From the IMG/VR virus record IMGVR_UViG_3300006802_000351, positions 1-30,117 of that record: a stretch of 30,117 bases of DNA; one strand, written 5' to 3'. Positions 2,433-24,889 of this stretch are shown one piece after another. Each line of letters opens with the position of its first letter. Within the stretch, counting starts at the first letter, position 1. The position numbers and the translations under genes are program-made. The DNA is from a virus. The notes under the pieces were generated by a model that was not told the DNA's origin, did not search any database, and was given only the letters and a program-made list of their open reading frames with translations.

Positions 2433-2891
2433 TCAGGCGGGTTGATACCAGTGCGAGATCAGGAGGCGGTCACCGCTCACCCAGGTGAACGGGATCGAGT
2501 TGGTGATACTCACCCCGCGCAGGTACGTCCCGGTGGTGTCCCACGCTAGGACTTGCAGGCTTCTGCCGCTGACGCGCCGTGTCACACCGTGGTAGTCGCT
2601 GCCGTCGGCGTCCTCGAAGAAGATTTGGCCGTTGCTCCCATCCGGCCGGAATCGAGCGCACGGGAGTGGGAAGGAGACCCACACGTTGTCGGTGATGTCG
2701 GTCGTCGACCCCCACAGCAACTCGACTTGCATGAAGACGAGGTCATTCAAGCGGCAGTAGCGCCCGGCGCTGCTCCCATTGCCGACGTTTAGGTTCGTCC
2801 ATTCCGGGGTGTACGAGGTCCATGTGCCGATCGCATTGAGTTCTGCTGCGGTGACCGCTTGGTCGCGTACGAAGGTTCCGAGGGTGCCCAT
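2433..2891 (-). CDS. Small tail-tip / fibre protein, paralogue of the N-terminus of the adjacent adhesin
   Basis: The 152-residue protein aligns with residues about 10-155 of the large adhesin at 3681-5876. Shared features include EWTNLNVGNG versus IWTNLTVGNG, GSTTDIT versus GSTTSIT, NGQIFFED.DG.DY.GVT and VPFTW..GD. The fold is predicted all-beta. It lies in the tail adhesin cluster and is probably a minor tail or baseplate-appendage component. The ATG at 2891 is preceded by TAAGGATCAGCACA, in which the upstream gene's stop, the AAGGA ribosome site and a copy of the RATCAGCA octamer are fused. Confidence 0.75.
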   Translation of the reverse strand: MGTLGTFVRDQAVTAAELNAIGTWTSYTPEWTNLNVGNGSSAGRYCRLNDLVFMQVELLWGSTTDITDNVWVSFPLPCARFRPDGSNGQIFFEDADGSDYHGVTRRVSGRSLQVLAWDTTGTYLRGVSITNSIPFTWVSGDRLLISHWYQPA

Positions 2892-2902
2892 TGTGCTGAT
2901 CC

Positions 2903-3679
2903 TTACGCATACATCGAGTTGTAGAGGGCGGTGATGTCAGTGGTATCGAGATACACGCCCTGCCAGTATTGCACCTTGGCGATACCAGTGCCCGCTGGCG
3001 CTGACCATTGAGTCAGCGAAGTGCCTGGGCATCCAATGGCAAAGTTCATGACCGATGGGTCGATTGTAACTTCACGTGATGTGGAGGCATTGCCAACATC
3101 GTTGACGATTGTGCCTGATAGGACTCCATCGACATACATGCCGATGCTGTTCATGTTGACTCTCACGGTAATCATGTGCCAGTCCGTATCGAGAAGATCA
3201 ACGTATGCTGATCGCAGCTTGTCGTCTCCCCATTCGGGCTGGGTGTACGACAGGCGGCTTCCATCAACCGAGAAAGCCCACATCGCATTTCGTGGCTGGA
3301 CAGCACCCGCCAACGATGATGAGGCGAAAGCAAGCGTGACGGGGCTTGACACTTTGAAGGTGAAAGTTCTGGATGCTAGGGCCAAGACGAGGCTCTTGTC
3401 GTTGCACCACCGCCAGGCTCCCTGATCGCTTGTTGACGCCTTGAACCAGAAGTTGATGGTCCACAGGAAGGTGTTTTCGGATTGGAGAAGCCTCCCTGCG
3501 TAACCGTGGATGTTGGCCACCGCTTGCTGCTTGATGCTGACTCGCTTGTTGGTGAAAATGAGTGCCCCGTCGCCATTGGGCAACGAGCTTGGCACCCACT
3601 GAGCGCCATTCTCGCTCTTTGAGGCTGTGAGCGGTACTTCTTGAATCAGTTCGGGGACCGAAACCCCTGACGACGACAT
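2903..3679 (-). CDS. Tail protein with a concanavalin/LamG-like lectin domain
   Basis: The 258-residue protein shows the laminin-G/concanavalin pattern: a front strand with TINFWFKAST, and later DWHMITVRVN, then GMYVDGVLSGT. This is the usual core of carbohydrate-binding jelly-roll domains in phage tail tips. No catalytic motif is seen. It starts one base after the stop of the large adhesin and ends just before the small paralogue at 2433-2891. Likely role: recognition of host surface glycan at the tail tip. Lectin function is inferred from fold pattern and position. Confidence 0.75.
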   Translation of the reverse strand: MSSSGVSVPELIQEVPLTASKSENGAQWVPSSLPNGDGALIFTNKRVSIKQQAVANIHGYAGRLLQSENTFLWTINFWFKASTSDQGAWRWCNDKSLVLALASRTFTFKVSSPVTLAFASSSLAGAVQPRNAMWAFSVDGSRLSYTQPEWGDDKLRSAYVDLLDTDWHMITVRVNMNSIGMYVDGVLSGTIVNDVGNASTSREVTIDPSVMNFAIGCPGTSLTQWSAPAGTGIAKVQYWQGVYLDTTDITALYNSMYA

Positions 3680-3680
3680 C

Positions 3681-5876
3681 TCATGTACCCCACTTCGTTG
3701 CCAGGTAGCTCTCGATTGCGGACAGTTCGTTCGCCTGTAGCTCTCGGTCGTAGACGACTACTTCGCCGAGCACCATGTCAGAACAGTAATTGGGGTCGAG
3801 GTTGTATCTGGTGCCCACGATGATTCCTACCATGCCATCTGGACCTGCATTGCCAGATGCGATTTCGGTGCCGTTGAGTCGGAGGTATGAATTGCTCCCG
3901 CTGAAAAAAGCCACGACGGCGTGGGTGTCTCCAGTAGTAATCGTCGTAGACGACGACAATACTGTGCCACCACTCATCATCCAGTTCGTGGTGTTGAACG
4001 CCCCCACGACTGACCGGTCGTTGCCAGTGGAGAGGAAGCCATCTGTGATGTGCGAGGATGTGTCAATCGTGTCGAAATTGGCGGCAATGACGATGGTGCG
4101 AGGCTGGTCAATGGTGGCGAAAGCGGTCCGCATGTAATCGTTAGTGCCATCGAAGTCGAGGGCGTTCAGGCCGTTCAATGTCCTCGTGCCGGTTGTGGGC
4201 TGATTCGTCGCGGTTGCTTGTGCCAGGTGATACCCGTTTCCGCTCAGGTCGTTCCACTGGCTGACACTTCCGCTCGATTCGGTGATCGAGCCAGTGTCGG
4301 AGGCGTCGTACCAGACTGCTGGCAACAAGAACGAGGCGTCGAATGCGATGGCTGCGTTAGGAGTGGCAGTCTCGATGTCAGACATAGTGCCTTGCCCCAC
4401 CTGATTGCTAGCCACAACTCGGAAGCTGTACTCGGTCCCGTTTGTGAGTCCGTCGGTGAAGACGAAAGTCCCTGTTGTTGTGGTGCTCGACCATGTGGTC
4501 CCATCTGCTGAATACTGAAGCTCGTACGAGGTGATGGTCGAACCCTTGTCGTCAGGAGCAGTCCACGTTGCCGTGACTATCGTGTCGGCAACGTCCAAAG
4601 TGAGGTCGGTGATCTGGGCCGGTGTGTTGCTGATCCCCCACTTGTTGTACAAGTAGTCCTTGATGGCATAGTGCTCGTCTTCCGTGACTTCGCGGTCGTA
4701 GCAAACGATCTCGCAGATGACGCCATTGAAATAGGAGGTGGCTGTTCCTTCCAAGAGCCGACCGACCGTCATGGCGCTCCACGAACCGGCCGGTGATGCA
4801 AGCGCGAGGAAGTACTCGTCGACATAGGCGATGTTGCCGTAATGCACGGCTGGGTCGATTGGTGAATAGCCGAAGTAGTCGACCTTGATGAGTACCGGTC
4901 GCGTGGTGACTTGGCTCCCGACAATCGTGCCGCTGAAGTTGTACCCGCTAGCGCGGAGCGCGATGTAGTGGCGGGTGTCTGTGCTGATCGCATCCAGAAT
5001 TGCGTCGGAGCTAGTGCTCGTGTTGATGGTGTCCTGCTGCATTACGAGGTAGACGGCGAACGGCTGGCTGAATGTCACTGGCGTGCTGATCGCCATGAAG
5101 CTGGTCGAGCCGTCGAAGTCGACCACGTTCAAGCCGTTGACGGTGCGAGTGCCGGACTGCGGGCGGTTGGCCGCTGTTGCTTGCACGAGGTCGGTATCCC
5201 CCGATCCGGCCTCGTCGGTCTTCGACCGCCACGCCGTGACGTTGTTGCTGCCATCAGTGGTGATCGTGGAGGTGTCCGCCGCATCGAACCACAGGTCGGG
5301 CGTTGGCATGATCTCGGTGTCGACGAGCACGGTGGTGTGCGATGCCGGTGCGAAGACCTCGGAGTCGAGCGTCAGTGCTGTTCCGTCGTACGCTGTCGCT
5401 CCCCCGACAATGGCCGGTGTGCCGTACCACAGCGACACCACCATGAAGTCTCCGGCCGCCCATGTGAACGGGACAGTGGCAGACAGGTCAGACGCTGAAG
5501 CGTACGACCCCGAGGCACTGACGACCTTCAAGTCGTAGACCGTTGTCGAGTTCGCTTCAGTGACGCCGTAGTAGTCGTCGCCGTCCACGTCCTCGAAGAA
5601 GATTTGCCCGTTGGCACCTCCGCGGTTAGCGGTGTCAGCCAGGATCGTCGCCGGGAACTCGACTGACACTGCCCCGGTGATACTGGTCGTGGAGCCAAAC
5701 TGAAGCTGAATGACGATGAACGCAAGGTCTTGGACCTGCCAAAAGTAGCCGTCCGCCACTCCGTTGCCGACGGTGAGGTTCGTCCAAATGGGGTCAAATG
5801 CCTGCACCTTGGCTAGGTCATTCAAGTCGTCTGCGGTGATTACGTCGAGGTCGGTCAATCCACCGATGGCGGTCAT
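3681..5876 (-). CDS. Multidomain tail adhesin: two lectin-like domains around an FN3 domain
   Basis: The start at 5876 (MTAIGGLTDLDV) has GGGAG five bases upstream. The earlier ATG at 5915 lies inside the hub gene and lacks one. The 731 residues divide into an N-terminal beta domain (1-155, paralogous to the protein at 2433-2891), lectin-like domain 1 (about 190-415), a fibronectin type III domain (about 420-507) and lectin-like domain 2 (about 515-731). The two lectin units are clearly duplicates. Each has LWFDAADT/VWYDASDT, an internal GTRT.NGLN..DFDG, and a closing YDRE....E...I..YL..KWG. Such proteins sit at the tail tip and bind cell-surface sugars. The gene follows the hub gene, consistent with the tail-tip order. 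Confidence 0.85.
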   Translation of the reverse strand: MTAIGGLTDLDVITADDLNDLAKVQAFDPIWTNLTVGNGVADGYFWQVQDLAFIVIQLQFGSTTSITGAVSVEFPATILADTANRGGANGQIFFEDVDGDDYYGVTEANSTTVYDLKVVSASGSYASASDLSATVPFTWAAGDFMVVSLWYGTPAIVGGATAYDGTALTLDSEVFAPASHTTVLVDTEIMPTPDLWFDAADTSTITTDGSNNVTAWRSKTDEAGSGDTDLVQATAANRPQSGTRTVNGLNVVDFDGSTSFMAISTPVTFSQPFAVYLVMQQDTINTSTSSDAILDAISTDTRHYIALRASGYNFSGTIVGSQVTTRPVLIKVDYFGYSPIDPAVHYGNIAYVDEYFLALASPAGSWSAMTVGRLLEGTATSYFNGVICEIVCYDREVTEDEHYAIKDYLYNKWGISNTPAQITDLTLDVADTIVTATWTAPDDKGSTITSYELQYSADGTTWSSTTTTGTFVFTDGLTNGTEYSFRVVASNQVGQGTMSDIETATPNAAIAFDASFLLPAVWYDASDTGSITESSGSVSQWNDLSGNGYHLAQATATNQPTTGTRTLNGLNALDFDGTNDYMRTAFATIDQPRTIVIAANFDTIDTSSHITDGFLSTGNDRSVVGAFNTTNWMMSGGTVLSSSTTITTGDTHAVVAFFSGSNSYLRLNGTEIASGNAGPDGMVGIIVGTRYNLDPNYCSDMVLGEVVVYDRELQANELSAIESYLATKWGT

Positions 5877-5889
5877 GTCTGCTCCCTGG

Positions 5890-7833
5890 TCAGCCCAACA
5901 CGTTAGTGCTGCCAATTTGGCCGTAGGTCGGGTGGTTGAGGATGAGTAGCGGGCCGTTCACGTTGGTGATCGACGACGTGACGAGCCTGAGCTTGCAAGT
6001 GCTCGGGGTGATGTTCCAGTTGATGCCCTCGACTCTCAAGGCACGCCACAGGTTTTCGTTGGAGCGCACCGGGTCGTAGACCACGACGGCACCTTGGCCG
6101 AGGTCGATCTCTGCCATCTTCTTGATGGCATCTGCGTCCATGCTCCTATCCCCCAAGACGATCTCAAGCTGAGTGACTCGATCTTGCGGCTCGGCGTAAC
6201 GGGCGACGTGCCGCTCGGCTGCTGATTGAGCCACGCCTTCATACGCCGCGTAAGGCAGAGCAAGATTGGCGGAGTAGGTGCCGTACTTTTCGATGCTGTC
6301 GTTGTCCTGTGCCTCGACTGATCCGCCAAGCCACGACCCGGTGACCTCATTCCGCAGCACTACCGGATCGCTGAACATTGCCGAGACAGCGTGGATCGAG
6401 GTGACATCCAAGCCGTCGCCGACGTACAGCTTGATGCCAGGCGACACGACAGTGTCTCGGTTCAAGAAGGTGATCTTGCCGATCCGGTTGCAGAAGACTG
6501 ATCCCTGCTCGCTGCTCGCTACATCTGCCAGGTAGTTCGCCAAGAACGCACCCTCGGGATTGAGTCCACGCAGCACCTCCTGGCCATCTTCTGCGACGAG
6601 CCAGGTTGTCGGGTCGACTCCCCCGTACAGCATTACCTCCTCGATCATCGACTTGGCGTCGGTAAGCTCTTCGCCGTTGCCAATGGTGGCCATCAAAGCG
6701 GGATCGTCTCCGCCGATGGAGAAGTGAGACACGAACGCATTGAGGCCGACGTAGCAGTTCGTCAAGAGCACGGCGACATTGCCAGTGTGAACGGTGCTGT
6801 AGGCGACAGTGTTTCTGAGTATGCCATTGACGTAGACGCTCAGGTTGGGAGTTGCTGATCGCCGGAAGTAGACATGCTTGCCCCGGCCATCGAAGAGACC
6901 GTCGACAGTTGCAAGGGTCGTCTCTTGTGTTGCCGTTGGGTAGTTGAGTGTGCTGAAACCCGTGGCGTAGTCGTACATGTGGAACTTGATGATTCCGTCG
7001 TCGTCCACACCCGACGGCGCGATGGTGATGTAGCCGTTCTCGATCGTACCGGCGACATGCACTTCGATCGCATCGGATGATGTCGTCCCCACGAACCAGA
7101 ACCCAAGCTCGTGGAACGAGTACGGCCGGAAGCCATCTTGGTTGTCGTCATTGCCGAACCCGAGCAAGGTGACCGCGTCGCCCCAGTAGGTAGACGCACC
7201 TGCTGGTGCCGTTGGCTTGTTGGTCAGCGAAGCGTGAGTGTCCGAACTGAAAGGCTTGTCGTCCGCATACCAGCCTCCCGTTCGGCTCGATGGGTTAGAC
7301 ACCTCATGGAAGTAACCGCCCATCTCGACCTCTTGCTCTTGCATCGGGATGTACTCGGTGACTGTGTTCTCCATGTATTGCACGAATGCTGATTCTGCCG
7401 CCTTCACTCGTCCGAGCATCCCGAGCAGATCGAAGCACTGGATGGTTACGGTGCTTTGCTTGTTGGCTGCTTCATAGCTCTGTGGCCACCCGGCGACGTA
7501 GCCTCGGTAGATCACAGTCGATGTCTGGACGCCTCCCACTTCCCCGTGGACAAGCTCGATCTTGATGTGGTTGTTCAGGCCAAGTCCGGTGTTGGGGTCA
7601 GTCGAGTAGTACAGCCCTGCCTCGTACGTCGGGTCGAACCGGCGGTCGTGGTTGTTGAGTGTGATGGTCGCCGTACCCGGCCCAAACCGCGAGAACTCGC
7701 TCGACCGTCCTCTGGTGATCGACAGGTTCGTGACACGATCTTGGATCGTGTTCCACCCTGACGGCTCTACGAACGGTGACGCAAACCCGAGCCAAACTCG
7801 GATGTCGTAGATGTTCTCGCCCCACAATGTCAT
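5890..7833 (-). CDS. Tail hub / minor tail protein with an inserted lectin-like domain
   Basis: The 647-residue protein begins with the siphovirus hub pattern: TNLSITRGRSSEFSRFGPG followed by TATITLNNHDRRFDP (residues about 34-68), then a beta-rich segment to about 160. Residues about 180-375 form an inserted LamG-like domain with FHELGFWFVG and a YVNGILR hairpin. The hub part resumes near 380 and ends with a structural region containing the repeated QLEIVLGDR type core. Its ATG overlaps the tape measure stop in ATGA, the usual coupling. Hub proteins cap the tail tube and carry adhesins. An insertion of a glycan-binding domain into the hub is compatible with receptor binding. Confidence 0.85.
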   Translation of the reverse strand: MTLWGENIYDIRVWLGFASPFVEPSGWNTIQDRVTNLSITRGRSSEFSRFGPGTATITLNNHDRRFDPTYEAGLYYSTDPNTGLGLNNHIKIELVHGEVGGVQTSTVIYRGYVAGWPQSYEAANKQSTVTIQCFDLLGMLGRVKAAESAFVQYMENTVTEYIPMQEQEVEMGGYFHEVSNPSSRTGGWYADDKPFSSDTHASLTNKPTAPAGASTYWGDAVTLLGFGNDDNQDGFRPYSFHELGFWFVGTTSSDAIEVHVAGTIENGYITIAPSGVDDDGIIKFHMYDYATGFSTLNYPTATQETTLATVDGLFDGRGKHVYFRRSATPNLSVYVNGILRNTVAYSTVHTGNVAVLLTNCYVGLNAFVSHFSIGGDDPALMATIGNGEELTDAKSMIEEVMLYGGVDPTTWLVAEDGQEVLRGLNPEGAFLANYLADVASSEQGSVFCNRIGKITFLNRDTVVSPGIKLYVGDGLDVTSIHAVSAMFSDPVVLRNEVTGSWLGGSVEAQDNDSIEKYGTYSANLALPYAAYEGVAQSAAERHVARYAEPQDRVTQLEIVLGDRSMDADAIKKMAEIDLGQGAVVVYDPVRSNENLWRALRVEGINWNITPSTCKLRLVTSSITNVNGPLLILNHPTYGQIGSTNVLG

Positions 7834-15343: not shown

Positions 15344-16198
15344 TCACGCTGTTGCTTGAAGATCGACGACGAGATCGGTGGCAATGTGTGCGTAGATCGA
15401 GATGGTGCCTTGCGGACTGACCGGCACCCACGACGTATTGCAAACCACGCCGCTGTTGCCGTAGTTCAAGTTGGACACGGTCGGGCGCGACCCGCCGCCG
15501 GACCAAGCGGTCAGGTAGCCGCTCTTCGCCGGATTGATCGAGGTGATGTTGACGAACGCCGCCCGAGCACCGTTGACCCCAATTGGAACGGCGATTGTGC
15601 CGCCGTCTTTGAGTCTCTGGCTGGTTTGTCGGGTGTCGAGCAACCGGATCGGTGGGTTGACGATTTGCATCTCTAACTCCTGCTGGATCGGCCGGAAGGT
15701 GTCATTGCGGACCTGCGCCCTGAGTCCATCTCCGGGGCACTGCGTAGCGCGCACGTCGGAGTGGCACACGATCTTGAGCGGGGCGCCCGCTCGATGTTGG
15801 CAGTGATCGGCAACTCGACGAACTGCCTGGGTCATCTCCCAGTTCGCTGCCTCGGCCCCGTTGACAAGGCAAAGGATCGCCGGGCCTTTGGAGTTCGACT
15901 CGGTGTTGCCGTTGGCGGCACACCGGTAGTCGTCGCCACGAATCTCCCACACCCGGCCCTGACGGTCGCACATCCAGTTGTAGCCGTACGAGTATCCACG
16001 GTTCTCGGCGTAGCTTCTCTGAGACTGCTGCAAACGTCGCAGCACTTCGTCGTAGTTCTCGGCGGTCTTCGGTGCCGCGGTGTAGTGGATCACGATGTAC
16101 TCGGCCATGTCCCACGGTTGAGGTCGAGAGTTGGTGTGCTCTCCGATCCTCCAGCCCGGCTCTTCCCAAATCTCACGAGCGATCATGCCTGGGACCAT
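15344..16198 (-). CDS. N-acetylmuramoyl-L-alanine amidase with actinobacterial-type C-terminal domain
   Basis: The product has an amidase_2/PGRP core, with zinc ligands H39 (YIVIHYTAAP), H147 and C155 (IVCHSDVRATQCPGD), counted from the upstream GTG at 16201. The spacing is like T7 lysozyme. It cuts the amide bond between MurNAc and the stem peptide. From about residue 183 the protein is a different beta domain beginning IRLLDTR with VNITSINPAKSGYLTAW and SNLNY. This repeat-free form is common in secreted actinobacterial proteins and probably binds the cell surface. I chose ATG 16198 because GAGG lies five bases upstream. GTG 16201 is the alternative. The gene lies among connector genes rather than by the holin, unusual for an endolysin, so a virion-associated role is possible. 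Confidence 0.9.
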   Translation of the reverse strand: MVPGMIAREIWEEPGWRIGEHTNSRPQPWDMAEYIVIHYTAAPKTAENYDEVLRRLQQSQRSYAENRGYSYGYNWMCDRQGRVWEIRGDDYRCAANGNTESNSKGPAILCLVNGAEAANWEMTQAVRRVADHCQHRAGAPLKIVCHSDVRATQCPGDGLRAQVRNDTFRPIQQELEMQIVNPPIRLLDTRQTSQRLKDGGTIAVPIGVNGARAAFVNITSINPAKSGYLTAWSGGGSRPTVSNLNYGNSGVVCNTSWVPVSPQGTISIYAHIATDLVVDLQATA

Positions 16199-16650
16199 CA
16201 CGACCTCAGTCTGTAGGGCGCGTAGCTGTAATCGTCAGTCGGATAGACACGCTCGTTGTCGTGGATGCCCTTGCGCCCGAACGTCGTCTCACGATCGTTG
16301 TCCAACTCACGGGACTCCTTCTCGCTCCGCTTGAAGCCAGAGATGAATGGCCCGACTGGCTCCAACTCTTCCTTGGACATGAGCGAGTTGGCAAGCTCCA
16401 TGTACTGCCGGTACTTGGCACTGAAGTCGGCCGACAACCCACCAATCGAGCGGTTCATGTTCCGGGCGAACTTGGCGGCAATCGCACGGCAGCACTCAGA
16501 TGCTGATCGGTTCAGTGTCCCATGCAGCGTGACTAGATAGTCGACCTCTTCATCGGAGATCAACTGGTCGTTGGTGTCCGTGTCTCCAATGACGAAGCGC
16601 ACAGCGTCGCGCTTCGACTGGTTGGGGTCACCGGAATACGACCAAGACAT
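16198..16650 (-). CDS. Head-tail connector / adaptor protein
   Basis: The 150-residue protein begins with SGDPNQSKRDAVRFVIGDTD, then DQLISDEEVDYLVTLHG and a helix with CCRAIAAKFARNMNRS. This is the hallmark of gp6-like adaptor proteins (DP..S..D.VRF.IGDT......L.DEEI) that sit beneath the portal. The N-terminal half is helical and the C-terminal third is polar and probably flexible. The TGA overlaps the amidase start. The gene follows a small coiled coil protein and opens the connector block. Confidence 0.85.
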   Translation of the reverse strand: MSWSYSGDPNQSKRDAVRFVIGDTDTNDQLISDEEVDYLVTLHGTLNRSASECCRAIAAKFARNMNRSIGGLSADFSAKYRQYMELANSLMSKEELEPVGPFISGFKRSEKESRELDNDRETTFGRKGIHDNERVYPTDDYSYAPYRLRS

Positions 16651-16823: not shown

Positions 16824-18428
16824 TCACCCGAATAGATCAATGTCGCCAAGATACGCCCCGGTCGCCTCTACATCGCCTAGATACATTTTAGTAACTGCAA
16901 GATCACCAAGGTATCCCTTGAATGAGGTAGGACTTGTTGACTCCGGCCCGATCCAGTCTTCGCTGACTTTCAGCGAATCCCACCAAAAGGGACCAGCGTC
17001 AGTAGTAACATTGACACCGAACCTGATGGTGCCCACGGAACTATAAGAAGCGGAGACAGTAACCTCTTCAGTTGCTGTTGTTGATTCCGTCGTGTTGTAC
17101 AGTCGCAAAGCAGAACTGGACGGGGTGACAGCAAACTCAATGCGGACCCAGGTGTTCAAAGAAAAAGATGAGGTGGTTGTACTGCCACCTATAGACAACG
17201 TGCCAGTAGAGTTCAGAATCACCTCAAACATTGACGAGTCTGACGCGTTGCCGACCCTCACAATGGTTGTGTTAGAACTTGGGTTGGCTGTGGCGTAGAA
17301 GTAGAATCGAGCGTAGAAGTTCGCTTTCGGCTCAGATGTGAAGGTCCATCCAGCCATAGAAGAACCTGAAGTGCCCGTATGCTCTGTTCGCATTGACACT
17401 GTGCCGCCCTTGGCGCGAGCAGTGTCGTAAACGGCAGCGGTGTTTGAGTAGAACAGGTTGAAAGCGTCAGGGCCAGCAAGACCAGGAGAAGACGCAATCG
17501 AAGTTTCGTCAGTACCGCCCTCTAACGTGTTCTCCAACTTCCACAACACGGGTGTTGCTGTTGCCGTATTCGACTGGGCGTTACCGGAAGCGTTAGTTCC
17601 AACAATGTAGAAGTAATATTGCTGGTCAGTAGTCAGCCCAGTAACGGTGTAGCTCGTCTGGTTTGTAATACCAGAAGCAACCGATGTGAAGTTCACATTG
17701 TCGGTACTTCTAAACACCTCGTATGTGGGATCAGGGTAAGCTCCCGTATCGTCGTTCCATGTCAGATCAACGCTCGTAGCCGACGCTGAAGCGGCAGAAA
17801 GCGTTCGTGATGTTGGTGCAGCGGGAGGGAAGTAGAAGTTGAGTGCTTGAGGAACGCTGATATACGAGGCAGGTGAGCCATTACTGTTGCCGGTTGACGT
17901 GTCATCAGTGCCGTCCCAGATCAAGGTGTTCGTGTAAGAAATACCTTTGTCTTGTGCGGCCGTATACCACACTTCCAAAACGAGTCGATCACCCTGCTGC
18001 AATGTGAACGAACCGATAGAGGCCGTGAACGACTCAACGCTAGTCGTTGTCGTCCACTCAGACCCCAACTCTGCGGCAGCATCATAGATGTATGAAGCAA
18101 CAGCCCCTGACCGCCATATGTACAACGAGGCCGCAACATACGGGTTGGCTCTGTTGTTACCAGACTGGTTGCCCACAAACATTGTCCATGTTTGGGCACT
18201 GACCGTTTGAGCCTCCAACTCGTCGGATGTGAAGATGGCAAACAGACCGCTTTGACGTGCGGTTTGAGCGGCAGAGTTGATAGATCGAGAGTCAGTCCCT
18301 GTGCCGATGGTCGTCGTCATCGTCCCAGCGGTTACCGTGCCAGTAGTGTTCGTCCCCCACGGAAGCGCAGTCGATTGAGACGATGTGGGGCCAGAAGATG
18401 TAGCCGAATGCCAGTAGAAAGTAGTCAC
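16824..18428 (-). CDS. Fibre/adhesin with FN3 domain, lectin-like domain and C-terminal YLGD repeats
   Basis: About 534 residues. The N-terminal 200 residues are beta-rich. A fibronectin type III domain follows (about 205-292, with SATSVDLTWNDDTG and YEVFRSTDN), then a lectin-like domain (about 295-505, with FYARFYFYATAN and STTIVRVGN). The last 30 residues carry YLGD three times at ten-residue spacing. I chose GTG 18428, whose GTGA overlaps the upstream stop and which has GGTGAG five bases upstream. GTG 18434 is possible. Base composition is visibly poorer in G and C than neighbouring genes, with frequent A/T third positions, suggesting recent acquisition. Likely surface-binding appendage on head or tail. 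Confidence 0.8.
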   Translation of the reverse strand: MTTFYWHSATSSGPTSSQSTALPWGTNTTGTVTAGTMTTTIGTGTDSRSINSAAQTARQSGLFAIFTSDELEAQTVSAQTWTMFVGNQSGNNRANPYVAASLYIWRSGAVASYIYDAAAELGSEWTTTTSVESFTASIGSFTLQQGDRLVLEVWYTAAQDKGISYTNTLIWDGTDDTSTGNSNGSPASYISVPQALNFYFPPAAPTSRTLSAASASATSVDLTWNDDTGAYPDPTYEVFRSTDNVNFTSVASGITNQTSYTVTGLTTDQQYYFYIVGTNASGNAQSNTATATPVLWKLENTLEGGTDETSIASSPGLAGPDAFNLFYSNTAAVYDTARAKGGTVSMRTEHTGTSGSSMAGWTFTSEPKANFYARFYFYATANPSSNTTIVRVGNASDSSMFEVILNSTGTLSIGGSTTTSSFSLNTWVRIEFAVTPSSSALRLYNTTESTTATEEVTVSASYSSVGTIRFGVNVTTDAGPFWWDSLKVSEDWIGPESTSPTSFKGYLGDLAVTKMYLGDVEATGAYLGDIDLFG

Positions 18429-18781
18429 AACCACTCACCCGTCAACAGGCATCCGTCCGCACTAGCCGGTAGACCATCAGGAGTCAGCGGGATATCGCGT
18501 CGCTGCTCATAGCCCTCCTCTAGGCAAGCCTGCGGCTGACCTGATTGGTCGTGCCAGCGAATAGTGCGAGTCCACTCCTCCTTGGTGCCGTCAAGATTGA
18601 AACGTCGATTCATTAGAACGACAGGCTGCCCATCAATCGCCGTAGGAGGAATCTCGCAGGCACCGCAGGCGTTACAAGTACCGGAGATGCGCCATCGCAA
18701 ACCGTCAGTGTTCTCATACTCCCACACATCGTCATAATGCGCTGTGATCCATGTCGTCGGGTCTTCCGTTGGTTCATTCAT
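18425..18781 (-). CDS. Cysteine-rich small protein with CxxCxxC motif
   Basis: Starting at ATG 18781 (MNEPTEDPTTWITAHYDDVWEYEN), five bases after the fibre stop, the product has 118 residues. It contains CNACGACEIPP, a CxxCxxC cluster, and further Cys in QACLEEGYEQRR and DGCLLTGEWL. This pattern can hold zinc or an iron-sulphur cluster and is rare in a fibre block. The longer frame to 18877 reads back into the fibre gene. It ends in GTGA overlap with the next gene. The ribosome site is weak (GAG). Function unknown. It may be an accessory or assembly factor. Confidence 0.65.
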   Translation of the reverse strand: MNEPTEDPTTWITAHYDDVWEYENTDGLRWRISGTCNACGACEIPPTAIDGQPVVLMNRRFNLDGTKEEWTRTIRWHDQSGQPQACLEEGYEQRRDIPLTPDGLPASADGCLLTGEWL

Positions 18782-18785
18782 CAGT

Positions 18786-19655
18786 TCAACTCGTAATGAG
18801 ATACAGGCGACCAGCGGGACGACCTGATCCCAATGCTGTATATGATGCTTGACTGATCTCCACGATGTCATCAACATCGCTACTCGTCACTGCTGCGTCG
18901 ATGATCGCCCCGTCAGTAGCAATATCTCGACCATCGACAGTGCCGCTCACAATGATGTTGCCGGTCACATCCAGGCCGGTGCTTGAGATTTCGCCAGCCG
19001 CATCGACCTGAGCGATCACGGTCCCGCTGCTGTTCTCCCACTGTGTCAAGTTGTTTGTTTGGCTAGCCAGCCCTTTGACTCTAATACCCAGATTGGCTGC
19101 ATCAGAAGGACTGACATTTAGGCTCGCAGCGTCTAACTGAACGGGGGAAAGCCCAGCACCAACCCCCCAGTCATTGACATTGAAGATTACCTTGCTGCTC
19201 GTACCGACTCTGAAAGACTGAACATTCCCAGCAGTGTCGATCGTTACAGCGAAATCTCCGTCAAACGTAGAGTCCCCGTTCACATCAAGAGCAGTAGCTG
19301 CACGAGTCCCGTTGGTGAGCAGATACTGGGTGTGGTCGTCGTCTGCGAGGCCGGTCAGTGCGCCGTGGTCCGTCGCACCGCCACCGCCACCGACCTCTAC
19401 CCAAGCGCTACCCGAACGTATAAAGAGCTTGTCGTTGGTCGTGTCAACTGCGAGAGCACCGTCAGCGATGGTCGCAGATGGCGTGCCCGCCGAAGTCAAA
19501 GTGATGACCCCATCGGACGCCTTGAGCACGCCGACTACATCAAGCGTGACGCCGGGCGTATTCGTCCCAACGCCTACTCGATTGTTCGTCTCGTCAACGG
19601 TCAGAGTTGTCCCGTCGACCTCGATGTCATTGACGACAAATGGGACTTTCGGCAC
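18786..19655 (-). CDS. Phage fibre protein with GVGTNTPxxxLDV motif
   Basis: The 289-residue protein has the repeated beta pattern of phage fibres: RVGVGTNTPGVTLDVVGVLK at residues about 26-45, DHGALTGLADDDHTQYLL near 95-112, and repeats of GLDVTGNIIVSGTVDG type. The end is SQASYTALGSGRPAGRLYLI. The same GIGT..P...LDV motif occurs in many T4-like and marine phage fibres. The start is GTG at 19655 with GAG upstream. It is one of three consecutive fibre genes between capsid and connector genes, so it is probably head-attached or part of a side fibre. Confidence 0.75.
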   Translation of the reverse strand: MPKVPFVVNDIEVDGTTLTVDETNNRVGVGTNTPGVTLDVVGVLKASDGVITLTSAGTPSATIADGALAVDTTNDKLFIRSGSAWVEVGGGGGATDHGALTGLADDDHTQYLLTNGTRAATALDVNGDSTFDGDFAVTIDTAGNVQSFRVGTSSKVIFNVNDWGVGAGLSPVQLDAASLNVSPSDAANLGIRVKGLASQTNNLTQWENSSGTVIAQVDAAGEISSTGLDVTGNIIVSGTVDGRDIATDGAIIDAAVTSSDVDDIVEISQASYTALGSGRPAGRLYLITS

Positions 19656-19667
19656 AGCCCGACTCTA

Positions 19668-21542
19668 TCAGGCAACGATGGCAGTCGAGAAGATTCGGTA
19701 GGTCGTCGAAGACGAGCTTGCTGCCGTGGCGGTCAACTCCAACGACGAGTTGGTGTAGGCAACCTCGAAGGTCGCTGGGGCGGTGCCCACAACAACCGTC
19801 GCGTACTCCGTGAAGTTGACCGTGCTGTTGTTGTAGACCGCCAGAAGCTCGGTGCTCACAGAGTTCGTGCCCTGCACCGCTTGGACGAGGTACTTCACGG
19901 TCGTGAACCCAGAGACCGCGTGAGACTCGATCACAGTCGGGCTAGTCGTCGTAGTGGTGTCGGCCACCGTACGCTGAGTCGAGGTCGCCGTACCGTCAGA
20001 TGTGCTGACCGAGCCGAACGTGACATCGCTCGTTGTAGCGACGGCCTGACCGATGGCGATGCTCGGAGTCGACCCTTCGCCCGTACCACCAGTGACGGTG
20101 ACGCCCGTGCCACCAGTGACAGAGGCAACGTAGTTGCCGGTCGTGTCAGTGCCGAGCGCAACCGAGTTCGCCGCGATGGTCGCCGTCAAGGTGACGTTCG
20201 CAGAACCGTCGATGCTGACGTTACCAGTGAGGTCGCCACCCAAGGTGATGGTGCGAGCCGTAGTCCACGACGCGGCAGTACCAGTCGTGTTGGCGTTGAT
20301 CGTCGCCGGGAGGCTCAGGGTAACTGCGCCGGTCGAAGCCGAGACCGTGATTTCGTTCGCGGTTCCGGTCAGCGAAGTGACACCGGAGTTCGTTACTGTA
20401 ACGGAATCCGCACCGGCATCGGTCGTCAGTGTGATGCCCGTGCCGCCGACAAGAGTCAGTGTGTCAGACGCCTGGTCAGCGACGACGTTCGACTGACCCG
20501 AGACAGCAATCGTGGTGAAAGACGAAGCGGACGACAAGGTGGCGGGAGCAAACTTCGTGCCGTTGTACTGGAGCACCTGACTGCTCGTGGCTCCGGTCGT
20601 GTCGACCTCGATACTGTCGACGAACAACGTCGAAGTTTCGACCGTGCCGACATCCAGCGTGCCCTTTGTGCCGGAGAAGACCTCGCTCGTGTTCGTGGCA
20701 TCAGGGATGAACGTGAACTTGCCGGACGAGTCATCGAAGCCGAAGAAGCCGACCTTGGCAGACGTTCCATTGTGCCAACGGAACTCGATGCCTCGGTCCT
20801 TGCTGTCGTCTGAACCGGGAGCCGTGTCGCCACCGAGCGTGAAGACGGGATCGTCAATCGTGACGACGGTCGAGTTGACGGTGGTGGTCGAGCCGTTGAC
20901 GATGAGGTCTCCGGTGACCGTCACGTCATTGGCGAAAGTCACCGTTCCGGCAGCATCGCCGATGTTGAGGGCGGTAGCAGCGCCACCGAAGTTGATCGTA
21001 GTTGCCGTGGCATTGACGAGATTGAACGTCGTCGCCGTGGTGGTGATGTCGCCACCGTTGACCGCAGCATCGCCCGTGAGTGTCAGGCCAACGAACGTCG
21101 GGGAAGCGCCCGTGTGAATGTCTTGAGGCAGCGACAACGTGATCGCCGCATTCTCAGAACCCGAGCCGGTGACGGTGACCTGATTGGTCGTGCCAGCAAT
21201 GGTGGCGACGTAGTTGCCCGTGGTATCGGTGCCGAGTGCGACGCTGTTGGCGGCGATGGTGGCTGTGAGCGTGACGTTTGCTGATCCGTCAATGCTGACG
21301 TTGCCCGTCAGGTCTCCACCGAGCGTGATCGTTCGTGCCGTGGTCCACGCCGACGCCGTTCCCGTGATGTTGCTATCGGTGAAGGCGATCGTCTTGGTCG
21401 CCGCTCCGGTGTAGAACTTCAGTGCCCCGCTGTCGTTCCAGAGGTCTCCGTTGGTCGATCCGGTCTGCGCGCTGGAGCGAATGACGACCTTGCCGTCGAC
21501 ATCAACACCTACAGATGGGATTCGGAAATCCTGACGAGCCAT
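19668..21542 (-). CDS. Large fibre protein with internal 53-residue duplication
   Basis: The 624-residue protein is almost entirely beta, rich in Thr, Val, Gly and Ala. It has an N-terminal SVGVDVDGKVVIRSS block, repeated TITLGGDLTGNVSIDGSANV units, a FNLVNATATTINFGG/ALNIGDAAGTVTF segment (about 173-205) typical of T4-like fibres, and a C-terminal domain (about 540-624) with STELLAVYNNS and TEYATVVVG. This last domain is shared with the next fibre at 21572-22705. Residues 61-113 and 421-473 are the same 53-residue module. It lies in the fibre block downstream of the capsid gene. Likely trimeric fibre. Receptor binding is inferred. Confidence 0.85.
   Translation of the reverse strand: MARQDFRIPSVGVDVDGKVVIRSSAQTGSTNGDLWNDSGALKFYTGAATKTIAFTDSNITGTASAWTTARTITLGGDLTGNVSIDGSANVTLTATIAANSVALGTDTTGNYVATIAGTTNQVTVTGSGSENAAITLSLPQDIHTGASPTFVGLTLTGDAAVNGGDITTTATTFNLVNATATTINFGGAATALNIGDAAGTVTFANDVTVTGDLIVNGSTTTVNSTVVTIDDPVFTLGGDTAPGSDDSKDRGIEFRWHNGTSAKVGFFGFDDSSGKFTFIPDATNTSEVFSGTKGTLDVGTVETSTLFVDSIEVDTTGATSSQVLQYNGTKFAPATLSSASSFTTIAVSGQSNVVADQASDTLTLVGGTGITLTTDAGADSVTVTNSGVTSLTGTANEITVSASTGAVTLSLPATINANTTGTAASWTTARTITLGGDLTGNVSIDGSANVTLTATIAANSVALGTDTTGNYVASVTGGTGVTVTGGTGEGSTPSIAIGQAVATTSDVTFGSVSTSDGTATSTQRTVADTTTTTSPTVIESHAVSGFTTVKYLVQAVQGTNSVSTELLAVYNNSTVNFTEYATVVVGTAPATFEVAYTNSSLELTATAASSSSTTYRIFSTAIVA
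20124..20282 (-). repeat. Internal fibre repeat, copy 2 (residues 421-473)
   Basis: Encodes a module nearly identical to residues 61-113 of the same protein: 51 of 53 residues agree and the two differing residues are a swapped Ala/Ser pair. At DNA level 37 of 159 bases differ, by my alignment, nearly all at synonymous positions. Confidence 0.9.
21204..21362 (-). repeat. Internal fibre repeat, copy 1 (residues 61-113)
   Basis: The partner of the module at 20124-20282. It begins GTASAWTTARTITLGGDLTG and ends at TDTTGNYVA. The intervening 307 residues contain different fibre sequence. Confidence 0.9.
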
Positions 21543-21571
21543 ACCTTTGGGCCTTCCTTGGAACTAAGACA

Positions 21572-22705
21572 TCAAGGTCCAACTTTGGCATACAAGATGC
21601 TGAATGTCAAAGGCGTCTGGGCCGGTGTAGCAACTAAACGCATCGACCCTCCCGAGTATTCCGCGTCAATAGACGCAAGCGTAGAACCGCCAATAGCCAG
21701 GAATCCGTACTCTGTGTATTCGAGGTCGCTTCCGTCATGAATGGCCAATAATTCGCTGGCTTGACGGCCAGTAGATGAGTTGGAGACATGCACAACGAAC
21801 TTCGCACATTGCGCGTCAACAGAGGCAATGGTTTGCGGAATCAGTGTCGAACTCGTGTATGTAATCGTCTGGAGTGCGCCGGGAGAAAAAGCCGACGGCC
21901 CCCAAAGCCCGGTCCCCGAAGAGTAGGTCAGAACGTCCCCGTTGGACGCGCCGGATACGTCCACGTCTTCGGACTCGGCAAGGGAACCGGCGAACGTCGG
22001 ACGGACAAGAACCGTTCCGTTCGACTTCTGATTGACGGCGACCGCAACCGTGACGATGTTGTTCGGTGCGGACGGTGCAGTCGACTGGAATCCACCCGCC
22101 ACCGTCGTCGAGGCGTACAGGATGCCGGGCGTGAGAAGCGACGTGTCAAACGAGCGCAGCTTGCCCCGCCAGAGGACATGAATGAACTCACCCGTGTCGG
22201 CATCTTGCGTCGCCAAGCCGATCACGGTCTTGGACTCGTAGGTGCCGTCGGCGAGGAACGGTGCGGCGAGGATGTGACCGCTCGCCCCATCGGTGCCGGT
22301 GTAGTGGACGACCTGGCCGCGGGTGATGGCCGAACTCGCCTTGACGTAGAAGTACTCGTCCTGGCCGATGTGCATCAACGTCGGCGTACCTGTGCCGTTG
22401 CGGAGGAGTACGTCGATCGTGTCGACATCGGCATCCCACGTCATCTGACCGGCAGCCGTCAACGTCTCCGCTGCTGTCGTGTCGAAGTCGATCTGGTCGA
22501 CCTTGATCTCGTCTTGCCAGGCGACATCGCCATGCGCTGCTGATTGCTTGACGAGGAGATCGTCAGTGGCACCGCTCAACGGAATGACGGCAGGCGTCGT
22601 GACAGTGAACGAGTTGTCGGTTTGCGTCACCGTCACTGAGTTGTCGGCCTCGACAACTACGACGGAGTTGTTGGCTTCAGTGACCGAGACTGTGTTGCTG
22701 CTCAC
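21572..22705 (-). CDS. Fibre protein with N-terminal short repeats and shared C-terminal domain
   Basis: The 377-residue protein begins with three to four short repeats of the form [ND]NS[VF]xVxx (NTVSVTEA, NNSVVVVEA, DNSVTVTQT, DNSFTVTTP), a likely beta-stack attachment stem. A middle domain with GQDEYFYVKASSAITRGQVV and ESKTVIGLATQDADTGEF follows, a pattern frequent in phage fibres. The C-terminal domain (about 290-377, SELLAIHDGSDLEYTEYG and LVATPAQTP) is homologous to the C-terminus of the 624-residue fibre. The gene overlaps the upstream gene in ATGA. Probably a fibre subunit that shares a trimerisation or tip domain with its neighbour. Confidence 0.8.
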   Translation of the reverse strand: MSSNTVSVTEANNSVVVVEADNSVTVTQTDNSFTVTTPAVIPLSGATDDLLVKQSAAHGDVAWQDEIKVDQIDFDTTAAETLTAAGQMTWDADVDTIDVLLRNGTGTPTLMHIGQDEYFYVKASSAITRGQVVHYTGTDGASGHILAAPFLADGTYESKTVIGLATQDADTGEFIHVLWRGKLRSFDTSLLTPGILYASTTVAGGFQSTAPSAPNNIVTVAVAVNQKSNGTVLVRPTFAGSLAESEDVDVSGASNGDVLTYSSGTGLWGPSAFSPGALQTITYTSSTLIPQTIASVDAQCAKFVVHVSNSSTGRQASELLAIHDGSDLEYTEYGFLAIGGSTLASIDAEYSGGSMRLVATPAQTPLTFSILYAKVGP

Positions 22706-23052
22706 CGCGTTGCCTCGCCACGAACCGTGAATGACCCCATGAGAAGCCGCTCGACAGTCGAACCGTCGACTAGCTCAAGGTCATAACGGTAAGTGCCGAC
22801 AGGCAAATCATCGGTGTCGGTGGCAGAAATCGTCAGAGTGATTGTGCCCGCCGCTCCACCGAGAGAGATGCGACCGTTCTCTGTAGTCAGTTCGATCAGG
22901 GACGTAGCCGACTTGACAAGCGGACGGACTTGCATACGAGCCGTCCAGCCCGTCAAGTCAATGAGCGTGCCGGAACTGTTCTTCCATGTGACAAGCTGGC
23001 TATACGTCGCGCCCTGATCGAGTGTGATGTTGTACTGACCTGCGAGCGCCAT
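22702..23052 (-). CDS. Small immunoglobulin-like structural protein, BppU N-terminal-like
   Basis: The 116-residue protein reads GQYNITLDQGATYSQLVTWK, then LIDLTGWTARMQVRP and ITLTISATDTDDLPVGTYRYDLEL. This is the beta-sandwich pattern seen in phage baseplate/head-appendage adaptors (DxGAT....F.wkds.G.pvdLtGyta.mqiR). These units often link fibres to the virion. Here it lies between a capsid-associated protein and a fibre, supporting an adaptor role for head fibres. The start at 23052 has only GTGAG upstream. Confidence 0.75.
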   Translation of the reverse strand: MALAGQYNITLDQGATYSQLVTWKNSSGTLIDLTGWTARMQVRPLVKSATSLIELTTENGRISLGGAAGTITLTISATDTDDLPVGTYRYDLELVDGSTVERLLMGSFTVRGEATR

Positions 23053-23069: not shown

Positions 23070-23507
23070 TCAGGCAGGGACGTATGTGATGTACGCAGTA
23101 CCTGCGAAGCTGCCAATGGTGCCAGTGATCGAGCCAGTGATGAACTGGGTGGCCGTGAGCGCACGAGCCGCCTTGCCGTTGGTGCCGCCGTCATCAATCG
23201 AACTGATGACTCCTGCCGATGCCGTCGACTTGCCGTCGATGAGCGTGTCGGAAGACGTAGTCCCGTCTGCCGCTACACCCACGTCGATCGTGGTCGTGGC
23301 GCCCGAGGCCGTGGTGATGTCAACGACGACCGAGGTCACGATGATCCGGCCACCCGTCGGGTTCTGCCAGGCGAGAGCGTTGCCTGCGCCAGTCGCCGAT
23401 CCCATCGTGACACGAGCCACTCGGGCAACCGGAGCGCCCGAGGTGGCGTTCGCATCCTCGACAACGATGTCGCCGACAAGCAGAGTGCCGTTAGTGGCCT
23501 TGTTCAT
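23070..23507 (-). CDS. Small beta-rich virion protein next to the major capsid gene
   Basis: The 145-residue protein (MNKATNGTLLVGDIVVEDAN...) is rich in Ala, Thr, Gly and Val. Strand-like segments RIIVTSVVVDITTASGATTTIDVGVAADG are followed by GSITGTIGSFAGTAYITYVPA at the end. AGGAG lies six bases before the ATG. It is the first gene after the capsid protein and before the adaptor/fibre genes, so it may decorate the capsid or anchor head fibres. I do not recognise a named family. Structural role is inferred from position and composition. Confidence 0.7.
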   Translation of the reverse strand: MNKATNGTLLVGDIVVEDANATSGAPVARVARVTMGSATGAGNALAWQNPTGGRIIVTSVVVDITTASGATTTIDVGVAADGTTSSDTLIDGKSTASAGVISSIDDGGTNGKAARALTATQFITGSITGTIGSFAGTAYITYVPA

Positions 23508-23522: not shown

Positions 23523-24482
23523 TCAGGCGACGCAGCCGCTGAAGAAGTATCCGAGGTCGGTGGCGACGACCTTGTAGTCCCACGCCATCTGGGCCTCGAT
23601 GCGGTCCGCACGAAGCTCCGGCATACGGAACCGGGTGATGCCCACGTTGGTGCCCATGCCGTCCGAGATACCCCGCCAGACGAACTGGTAGCCCGCCGAC
23701 GGAGTCAGGAGGCCCGGCGAACCGGCGACGTAGTACAGAGCGGCGTTGTTGCCCGCGGTGAACGAGAACGAGTCGGCAGCACCTTCGGCCCCGGCGTTCT
23801 TGATCGAGCGAGACACGAGCACCCGGTCAACTCCGAAGAGTCGGGCGAGGATGCCCTCGGCCGGAACCTCGGACGAGGTGTACTTGATCCGATCGACGAC
23901 ATCGGGATGATGCCGCAACTGACGGAAGGCGTCGTAGCCGATGACCATCAAGTTCGGCATGAAGCCCGTGTTCGACAACATCGTCGACTTGCCCGTCTCG
24001 ACATCGGTGATCGGGTCCGACGAAGTGTAGTTCGACCACACCGTGAAGTCGGTGCCGCCAACCACGTCGGTGTCCCAGACGCCGGTCGTGAAGTAGGTGC
24101 CGACCCACTCGATCTCCTGGCGGAGCATCATCCGCTGCGTGACGAACTGAGTCGCATCCCGGTCAGGGTTGAGCGGGCTGTCGGCGTTCGCACGAGTCTG
24201 ATCGTCCACGTCCTTATGAAACGCATAGACCGAGGTCGTGTAGGTGTCGGTCGAGAGCGAGTATCCCGATCCGGCCGACTCAGTAGCCGGGGCACGAAGC
24301 TGGGCTTCGTCGCGGAACCAGTCGCCCTTGGTGTACTTGAAGTACTTGTCGGACTGCTTCTCGACAGGGACGGAGGGGAAGACCTGATTGGCGATGAACG
24401 CCGAGGTCTGCTGCATGTATGCGACACTGATGTTGGTCAGGATCGCATCAACATGCACATCGTTTGCGGTGGGCTGAGGCAT
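23523..24482 (-). CDS. Major capsid protein
   Basis: The 319-residue protein contains the pattern of HK97-fold capsid proteins found in many tailed phages. NDVHVDAILTNISVAYMQ leads the N-terminus, QVFPSVPVEKQSDKYFKY and GDWFRDEAQLRAPATESAGSG follow, and YAFHKDVDDQTRANAD marks the E-loop/spine region. Later come MVIGYDAFRQLRHHPDVVDRIKY and VDRVLVSRSIKNAG, with a closing beta segment. AGGAG is six bases before the ATG. It follows the decoration and scaffold genes, the normal head gene order. It forms the icosahedral shell. Confidence 0.95.
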   Translation of the reverse strand: MPQPTANDVHVDAILTNISVAYMQQTSAFIANQVFPSVPVEKQSDKYFKYTKGDWFRDEAQLRAPATESAGSGYSLSTDTYTTSVYAFHKDVDDQTRANADSPLNPDRDATQFVTQRMMLRQEIEWVGTYFTTGVWDTDVVGGTDFTVWSNYTSSDPITDVETGKSTMLSNTGFMPNLMVIGYDAFRQLRHHPDVVDRIKYTSSEVPAEGILARLFGVDRVLVSRSIKNAGAEGAADSFSFTAGNNAALYYVAGSPGLLTPSAGYQFVWRGISDGMGTNVGITRFRMPELRADRIEAQMAWDYKVVATDLGYFFSGCVA

Positions 24483-24496
24483 TGCTGGCTCCTAAC

Positions 24497-24889
24497 TCAG
24501 GCGGCTCGTGCCGGGGTGGCGCAGTTGATGATGGCGGTCCCGATCACACCGGCTGCTCCCGTAGCGGTGAGCATCTGCCCACCGACGTAATGCGTGGTGT
24601 CGGTCCCGATGACTCGGGCATCGGCTTGGCCGTCTGCCGACGGTCCAATGAGATCGCCCTCGTTGAGAGCGGCATCCGAGGACACCTTGCTCACGCCAAC
24701 GACGACGATTTCCGCAGTCTGTCCGGCAGTCGGGTCGTTCTGAAGAACGCCCACTGGGACATCGGTCAAAGCGGCACAGGCAGCGGCCTTGCCGTTCGAG
24801 TCGACTTTCACGAAGTGGTACTGCTTGGCCGACAAGTCAGCGGCAGCCTCCAACGTGATCTTGAGTGGCTGGGATGCCTGGTATGCCAT
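24497..24889 (-). CDS. Capsid decoration protein, DUF2190-like
   Basis: The start at 24889 (MAYQASQPLKITLEAAADL) has GAGGT seven bases upstream. The longer frame to 24949 lies inside the scaffold gene and lacks one. The 130-residue product shows SAKQYHFVKVDSNGKAAACA, TDVPVGVLQNDPTAGQTAEI, then VVVGVSKV and NEGDLIGPSADGQA, the pattern of DUF2190-type head decoration proteins. These bind the outside of the expanded capsid and stabilise it. It lies just before the capsid gene, as expected. Confidence 0.85.
   Translation of the reverse strand: MAYQASQPLKITLEAAADLSAKQYHFVKVDSNGKAAACAALTDVPVGVLQNDPTAGQTAEIVVVGVSKVSSDAALNEGDLIGPSADGQADARVIGTDTTHYVGGQMLTATGAAGVIGTAIINCATPARAA

What the first reader, a model, noticed from the sequence alone, without database searches (positions are those of the whole stretch)
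16824..23052. Fibre and adhesin block between capsid and connector genes: likely head fibres
Six genes of fibre or adaptor type (BppU-like adaptor, two fibres sharing a C-terminal domain, one LDV-motif fibre, a cysteine-rich protein, an FN3/lectin adhesin) interrupt the usual capsid-to-connector order. Tail-tip adhesins already follow the hub at 2.4-5.9 kb. Inference: this phage has two appendage systems, one on the head.
Basis: inference. Interest (0 to 1): 0.6.

Follow-up and report, generated by a model that had tools for sequence, protein, structure and literature searches.

The report
Probable neck fibre cassette of phage
Between its shell gene and its head-to-tail connector gene, this uncultivated virus of probable actinobacteria carries an inserted set of fibre genes that most likely builds a second set of fibres on the virus's neck rather than on its head, making it a new version of the known neck-fibre theme and not a new kind of structure.

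Summary
Six fibre- or adaptor-type genes (window 16824-23052, minus strand) lie between the capsid/decoration genes and the head-tail connector. Most phages with a related capsid gene lack them, so this is an insertion at a hotspot. Tail-tip adhesins are encoded separately, so two appendage systems are likely.

The "head fibre" reading is only partly supported. The evidence points to the neck, at the connector ring.
(1) The 116-aa protein is an Ig-like, BppU-type fibre-docking adaptor. It is translationally coupled to a fibre gene in nearly every relative read.
(2) A related domain is fused to the connector itself in two lineages of this capsid family. It is also fused to a second, unrelated adaptor family. 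Every fused phage whose upstream genes could be read has appendage genes upstream; close relatives without the domain lack them.
(3) A 66-77% identical adaptor+fibre pair in another siphophage (L114) sits among neck genes with a homologue of GP4 fibre I, the family of Sf14's neck whisker protein.
(4) Cultured Streptomyces phage Wakanda has the same order: capsid, gp24, adaptor, two fibre-like genes, connector.

Location is inferred, not seen. The same adaptor family also sits beside baseplate genes in other phages, so a tail position remains possible.

The parts
24497..24889 (-). W130, capsid cement/decoration protein (130 aa), conserved upstream of MCP; context, not part of the block
   Evidence: Pfam Phage_cement_2 1.4e-4, just under the curated cut-off; phrog_673 3.6e-16; present in relatives
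23523..24482 (-). Major capsid protein (319 aa)
   Evidence: phrog_1005 4.6e-96; 53% to Arthrobacter phage Ottawa MCP
23070..23507 (-). B145, family-specific protein after MCP, probable decoration; present in relatives without the fibre block
   Evidence: 58-84% identity in many MCP relatives
22702..23052 (-). B116, Ig-like BppU-type fibre-docking adaptor; probable attachment of the appendage to the connector ring
   Evidence: phrog_1084 1e-26; AF2 pLDDT 88; Foldseek 80alpha baseplate TM 0.66 and R4C portal-adaptor TM 0.60; remote similarity to the adaptor-fused domain
21572..22705 (-). B377, fibre translationally coupled to B116 (4-nt overlap); V-rich N-terminus, shared C-terminal domain with B624
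   Evidence: 76% over 276 aligned residues to the L114 fibre; C-terminal domain test
19668..21542 (-). B624, long fibre with repeats common in cyanophage structural/fibre proteins
   Evidence: phrog_697 1.2e-45, phrog_356 5e-20; tblastn to cyanophage fibres
18786..19655 (-). B289, LDV-motif fibre
   Evidence: three LDV motifs; similar segments in fibre genes downstream of B116 homologues in L101, L107, L111
18425..18781 (-). B150c, Cys-rich small protein (118 aa from the likelier start), function unknown
   Evidence: CxxCxxC; start reassessed; no homologue found
16824..18434 (-). B536, FN3-containing adhesin with jelly-roll-like N-terminus and YLGD repeats at the C-terminus
   Evidence: Pfam fn3 1.9e-6
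16198..16650 (-). CONN, head-tail connector (adaptor ring) protein, likely docking ring
   Evidence: phrog_1732 9.5e-22; family profile matches the Sf14 head-to-tail connector gp35, 7.2e-10; fused relative matches solved 9c39_C and 11bp_M
2433..7833 (-). Distal tail/hub-like protein (5890-7833) and tail-tip adhesins (3681-5915, 2903-3679, 2433-2891): the first appendage system
   Evidence: FN3 4.5e-13 and LamG-like hit; position after tape measure

Best explanation
The block is a horizontally acquired neck (collar) appendage cassette. B116 is an Ig-like BppU-type docking domain that sits on the outside of the dodecameric head-tail connector ring made by CONN. It captures the V-rich N-terminus of the fibre made by the next gene, B377. 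B624, B289 and B536 extend or decorate the appendage and carry the sugar- or surface-binding parts. The neck fibres would give reversible capture of the host or its matrix, while the separate tail-tip adhesins make the committed contact. Shown: gene content, insertion at a hotspot, coupling of B116 to a fibre gene, a related domain fused to connectors in relatives, link to a GP4/Sf14 whisker-type gene in L114. Inferred: that B116 binds CONN, the order of parts in the fibre, and the function.
For: Docking domain on connectors: in two lineages of the same capsid family (L010 group, L037 group) the connector carries a ~105-aa N-terminal domain matching BppU_N (2.3e-4, just below cut-off) and phrog_1084, the family of B116 (3e-4). 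A homologous domain (hhalign 98.5%, 4e-15) is fused to a second adaptor family (phrog_442) in L120-L136, whose core is not detectably related to CONN. A profile of that domain ranks B116-family proteins, window B116 included, next after the fused proteins among about 2400 proteins (E 1e-4 to 0.01; first unrelated hit E 0.037). Association: all fused connectors with readable upstream genes (2 + about 9 lineages) have appendage genes there, most with ~20-aa-period rope-like proteins and some with gp80-like proteins; relatives with the plain adaptor (L137-L149) have none. L114, an unrelated siphophage, has B116 (66%), B377 (77%), a gp80 homologue and a rope protein between terminator and tail-tube genes. 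gp80 is GP4 fibre I (8jou, 2.4e-10) and Sf14 neck whisker gp31 (9c39_K). Sf14's head-tail connector is a CONN homologue. Cultured phage Wakanda: MCP - gp24 - B116 homologue - lectin-like fibre - jelly-roll-like protein - head-tail adaptor. B116 genes also follow portal or neck-adaptor genes in several other lineages.
Against: In other phages B116 homologues lie beside baseplate or distal-tail genes (HTVC008M, AP1, L103, L221, L222), so the adaptor is not neck-specific. gp80 homologues also occur next to minor tail genes in mycobacteriophages. The window itself has neither gp80 nor a rope protein, and its connector is not fused. The sequence link between B116 and the fused domain is remote; a direct profile-profile comparison was not significant. 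The R4C adaptor has an Ig-like attachment domain that touches the capsid and carries no fibre (PMC10276861). The Foldseek match is to a very common fold. No virion data exist.
Confidence: 0.6

Rival explanations
1. Head fibres: the fibres are attached to the capsid shell (capsomers or decoration proteins).
For: Block lies directly after MCP and B145. RcGTA and phi29 show that head fibres exist (PMC7296036; phi29 from own knowledge). The R4C adaptor Ig domain touches the capsid.
Against: No block protein matches a known head-fibre or capsid-binding family. B145 and W130 occur in relatives lacking the block. The docking domain is fused to connectors, not to capsid or decoration proteins, in relatives.
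Confidence: 0.13
2. Out-of-place tail-tip or baseplate fibres: B116 docks on the distal tail ring as BppU does, and the genes merely moved.
For: BppU-type adaptors act at baseplates (80alpha, TP901-1, Douge). B116 homologues follow Dit or baseplate genes in L221, L222, L103 and HTVC008M. Salgado gp28 at the same site matches minor tail protein families.
Against: The window already has adhesins after its own hub. Where B116 acts at a tail tip its gene lies beside that module. The connector fusions and the neck position in L114, L098, L216, L233 and Wakanda argue for local docking.
Confidence: 0.2
3. The adaptor Ig domains only stabilise the head-connector joint, and the association with fibre genes is incidental.
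For: The R4C authors propose local stability for their adaptor Ig domain (PMC10276861); phrog_442 adaptors often carry an N-terminal domain.
Against: Within two adaptor families the domain occurs with appendage genes in every lineage whose upstream genes could be read and is absent from plain-adaptor relatives without inserts. B116 stands alone and is coupled to a fibre gene in nearly all relatives.
Confidence: 0.07

Closest known systems
Podophage GP4 fibre I (gp80 plus rope and collar)
   Same: gp80 homologues and repeat 'rope' proteins occur in cassettes at the same genomic site or together with B116/B377 (L010, L114); fibre held at a neck collar.
   Different: The window has no gp80 or rope; GP4 is a podophage; the window's fibres are of another type.
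Shigella myophage Sf14 neck whiskers (gp30, gp31)
   Same: Connector is a CONN homologue; gp31 belongs to the gp80 family; whisker genes lie among head genes.
   Different: Contractile tail; whisker genes sit between portal and protease; gp30 has no detectable similarity to B116.
BppU/FibU adaptors (TP901-1, 80alpha, mycobacteriophage Douge)
   Same: Ig-like beta-sandwich adaptor that connects a ring to fibres.
   Different: Those bind the distal tail ring; here the gene and the domain fusions point to the connector ring.
R4C head-tail adaptor with Ig-like attachment domain
   Same: N-terminal Ig-like domain on a connector; structural match to B116 (TM 0.60).
   Different: No fibre reported on it; the domain contacts the capsid.
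Anabaena phage A-1(L) neck fibres; Pseudomonas phage DEV gp53 collar
   Same: Fibres attached at the neck or head-tail adaptor, in addition to other tail fibres.
   Different: Unrelated proteins and gene positions (PMC10966104, PMC10925440).

Membership tests
BppU-type fibre adaptor (phrog_1084) | sequence family membership | tested here: met
   B116 phrog_1084 1e-26
BppU-type fibre adaptor (phrog_1084) | Pfam BppU_N (PF10651) match by B116 itself | tested here: not met
   No PF10651 hit for B116; only LtfC-like 0.028. Fused relatives hit PF10651 weakly
BppU-type fibre adaptor (phrog_1084) | Ig-like beta-sandwich fold like phage upper-baseplate adaptors | tested here: met
   AF2 pLDDT 88, 80alpha baseplate chain TM 0.66; many antibody hits too
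BppU-type fibre adaptor (phrog_1084) | binds a ring protein and a fibre | not testable with these tools
   only gene coupling and fusions
GP4 fibre I / Sf14 whisker (gp80 family) | gp80 homologue in the cassette | tested here: not met
   None in the window among hits of the gp80 profile; present in L010, L114, L128
Neck fibre (functional class) | fibre attached to connector or collar | not testable with these tools
   needs EM; indirect evidence only
Head fibre (phi29 gp8.5, RcGTA spike) | homology to known capsid-binding fibre or base proteins | tested here: not met
   no such match in Pfam, PHROGs, or PDB sequence search for B116 and B377
Tail-tip receptor-binding module | encoded next to distal tail/hub genes | tested here: not met
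   block is about 9 kb from the distal tail gene, between MCP and connector

The most novel reading that the evidence does not exclude
One mobile docking domain of BppU type serves as a plug for adhesins at either end of the tail: on the distal tail ring in some phages and, free-standing or fused to the connector, on the neck ring in others. Phages can thus exchange or duplicate whole appendage systems between tail tip and neck by moving one two-gene unit.
Probability: 0.4. Interest if true: 0.68.

Novelty: new variant of a known kind. Interest (0 to 1): 0.5.

Why it matters
Neck fibres are known from a handful of solved virions, but their genes are rarely recognised from sequence. A docking domain that marks neck appendages, including fusions to the connector in two adaptor families, would let many 'hypothetical' or 'minor tail' genes between capsid and connector be read as neck fibres. 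It also offers cultured proxies (Streptomyces phage Wakanda and relatives) to test what such fibres do.

Tried and rejected
DNA-level search in phage records: no match. Direct hhalign of B116 and fused-domain alignments: not significant; replaced by a ranking test. Sf14 whisker base gp30 as a B116 homologue: rejected. Window fibres as rope-type repeats: rejected, no clear ~20-residue period. L016's 297-aa insert as a fibre: rejected on reading, it looks like a head/internal protein. gp80 as a neck-only marker: rejected, it also occurs beside minor tail genes in mycobacteriophages. PDB entry 26dk matches the B116 profile (1.9e-10) but its identity could not be read with these tools. Structure of the fused connector was only medium confidence (pLDDT 69) and its PDB matches were mixed (80alpha baseplate, R4C adaptor, other necks, CopC).

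Full report
What is there. The window is an uncultivated virus record of 30,117 bases. The genes discussed here are on the minus strand. In order of transcription: two mosaic proteins, a scaffold-like protein, a cement protein (W130), the major capsid protein (phrog_1005), B145, then the six genes of the finding (B116, B377, B624, B289, B150c, B536), the head-tail connector CONN, an amidase, h112, stopper, gp10-like, terminator, tail tube, tape measure, distal tail/hub and tail-tip adhesins. A WhiB gene (Pfam 3.7e-22) and 53% capsid identity to an Arthrobacter phage suggest an actinobacterial host (inference).

All six ORFs are present. The shared C-terminal domain of B377 and B624 is far above shuffled sequence (94 against 31.8, sd 5.1). 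FN3 in B536 is significant. B150c probably begins at 18781, not 18877. Phages with related capsids, both cultured and from IMG/VR, mostly run capsid - one small gene - h112 - connector. A few lineages have other inserts at the same site (Salgado, Ottawa, L010, L037, L061, L071). So the site is an insertion hotspot, and the window's insert is one of several independent ones. Low GC3 in three of the six genes agrees with recent acquisition.

What the adaptor is. B116 belongs to phrog_1084. Its model is an Ig-like sandwich (pLDDT 88). The best phage matches by fold are the 80alpha baseplate adaptor and the adaptor of siphophage R4C, whose N-terminal domain is an Ig-like attachment domain on the connector ring. 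In relatives the next gene nearly always starts with a V-rich stretch, often followed by a collagen-like segment, and overlaps the B116 stop by 4 nt in most cases, as in the window. B116 and its fibre are therefore a unit.

Why the neck. First, a related domain is physically part of the connector in relatives. In the L010 and L037 groups the CONN homologue has a ~105-aa N-terminal extension matching BppU_N and phrog_1084. In L120-L136 a homologous domain is fused to an HK97-gp6-type adaptor (phrog_442) whose core is not detectably related to CONN. A profile of the fused domain ranks B116-family proteins next after the fused proteins themselves among about 2400 proteins. Second, every fused lineage whose upstream genes could be read has appendage-type genes directly upstream, most including a rope-like protein with a period near 20 residues, while plain-adaptor relatives L137-L149 have none. 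The counts are contigs, many nearly identical; independent lineages are about 2 and 9 against about 3. Third, L114 carries B116 and B377 homologues (66% and 77%) next to a gp80 gene and a rope protein of the same family as L010's (phrog_23524), between terminator and tail tube genes. gp80 is the solved fibre I of podophage GP4 (8jou; Zheng et al. 2023, its neck-collar location from own knowledge and as cited in PMC10925440). The Sf14 whisker gp31 is in the same family, and Sf14's connector is a CONN homologue. Fourth, cultured Streptomyces phage Wakanda has the same order: capsid, gp24, a B116 homologue, a lectin-like fibre, a jelly-roll-like protein, then the head-tail adaptor. Fifth, in a non-redundant set of B116 loci the gene recurrently follows portal or neck-adaptor genes (L097, L174, L186, L205, L211, L234; L098, L216, L233), once the capsid gene (L165); in others it follows distal-tail or baseplate genes (L221, L222, L103, L105) (assigned by reading, except the SU10-type adaptors of L098).

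What counts against it. The last point cuts both ways: the adaptor is used at tails too. gp80 also lies beside minor tail genes in mycobacteriophages. The window lacks gp80, a rope protein and a fused connector. Direct profile comparison of B116 with the fused domain was not significant. R4C's Ig domain carries no fibre. In the L010 group, but not L037, a GTG lies at the position of the free connector's start codon, so an unfused product cannot be excluded there; no close ribosome site is visible.

Mechanism proposed. B116 subunits ring the CONN dodecamer and hold B377 fibres; B624, B289 and B536 extend or tip them. The neck fibres capture host surface or matrix reversibly, and the tail-tip adhesins complete attachment. 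Only the gene-level facts are shown; binding and function are inferred. Confidence 0.6 for the neck, 0.2 for tail, 0.13 for capsid shell.

Comparison with the known. Neck fibres are an established class (T4 fibritin, A-1(L), Sf14, GP4, DEV). This is a new variant: a BppU-type dock, free or fused to the connector, with a different fibre set. It is not a member of the gp80 whisker family by test.

Noticed in passing
15344-16201: An Amidase_2 endolysin-like gene (Pfam 2.1e-11) sits between connector and stopper, and h112 is displaced behind it; relatives have h112 before the connector and no amidase there.
   Followed up: partly
25744-30116: The 1121-aa and 371-aa proteins carry a repeated tag (KHAxHNQxxHGxWA, three full and one partial copy in the first, one in the second) plus a GHPFRGNQ motif between apparently unrelated domains (HNH-like and acetyltransferase-like by eye, DUF5872, DUF6321); similar tags occur in large proteins upstream of the capsid gene in relatives. 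Possibly packaged or capsid-targeted cargo.
   Followed up: partly
18425-18781: Small protein with CxxCxxC in the fibre block, poor codon fit and no homologue found; Salgado gp30 at the same site is also small and Cys-containing.
   Followed up: no
L121:796-1575, L127:3195-4037: A nucleotide-sugar epimerase-like gene lies just upstream of the appendage cassette in the fused-adaptor phages; it might serve glycosylation of the appendage.
   Followed up: no
L010:11470-12246: In-frame GTG at the position of the free connector's start codon inside the fused adaptor; a second, unfused product is conceivable in this lineage but not in L037.
   Followed up: partly
L157:10087-10974: Wakanda's head-tail adaptor (gp28) aligns over its full length to phrog_442, including the N-terminal part that is missing from plain adaptors such as L137, so adaptors with an extra N-terminal domain may be widespread.
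   Followed up: partly
756-1022: WhiB-family regulator (Pfam 3.7e-22), pointing to an actinobacterial host.
   Followed up: no
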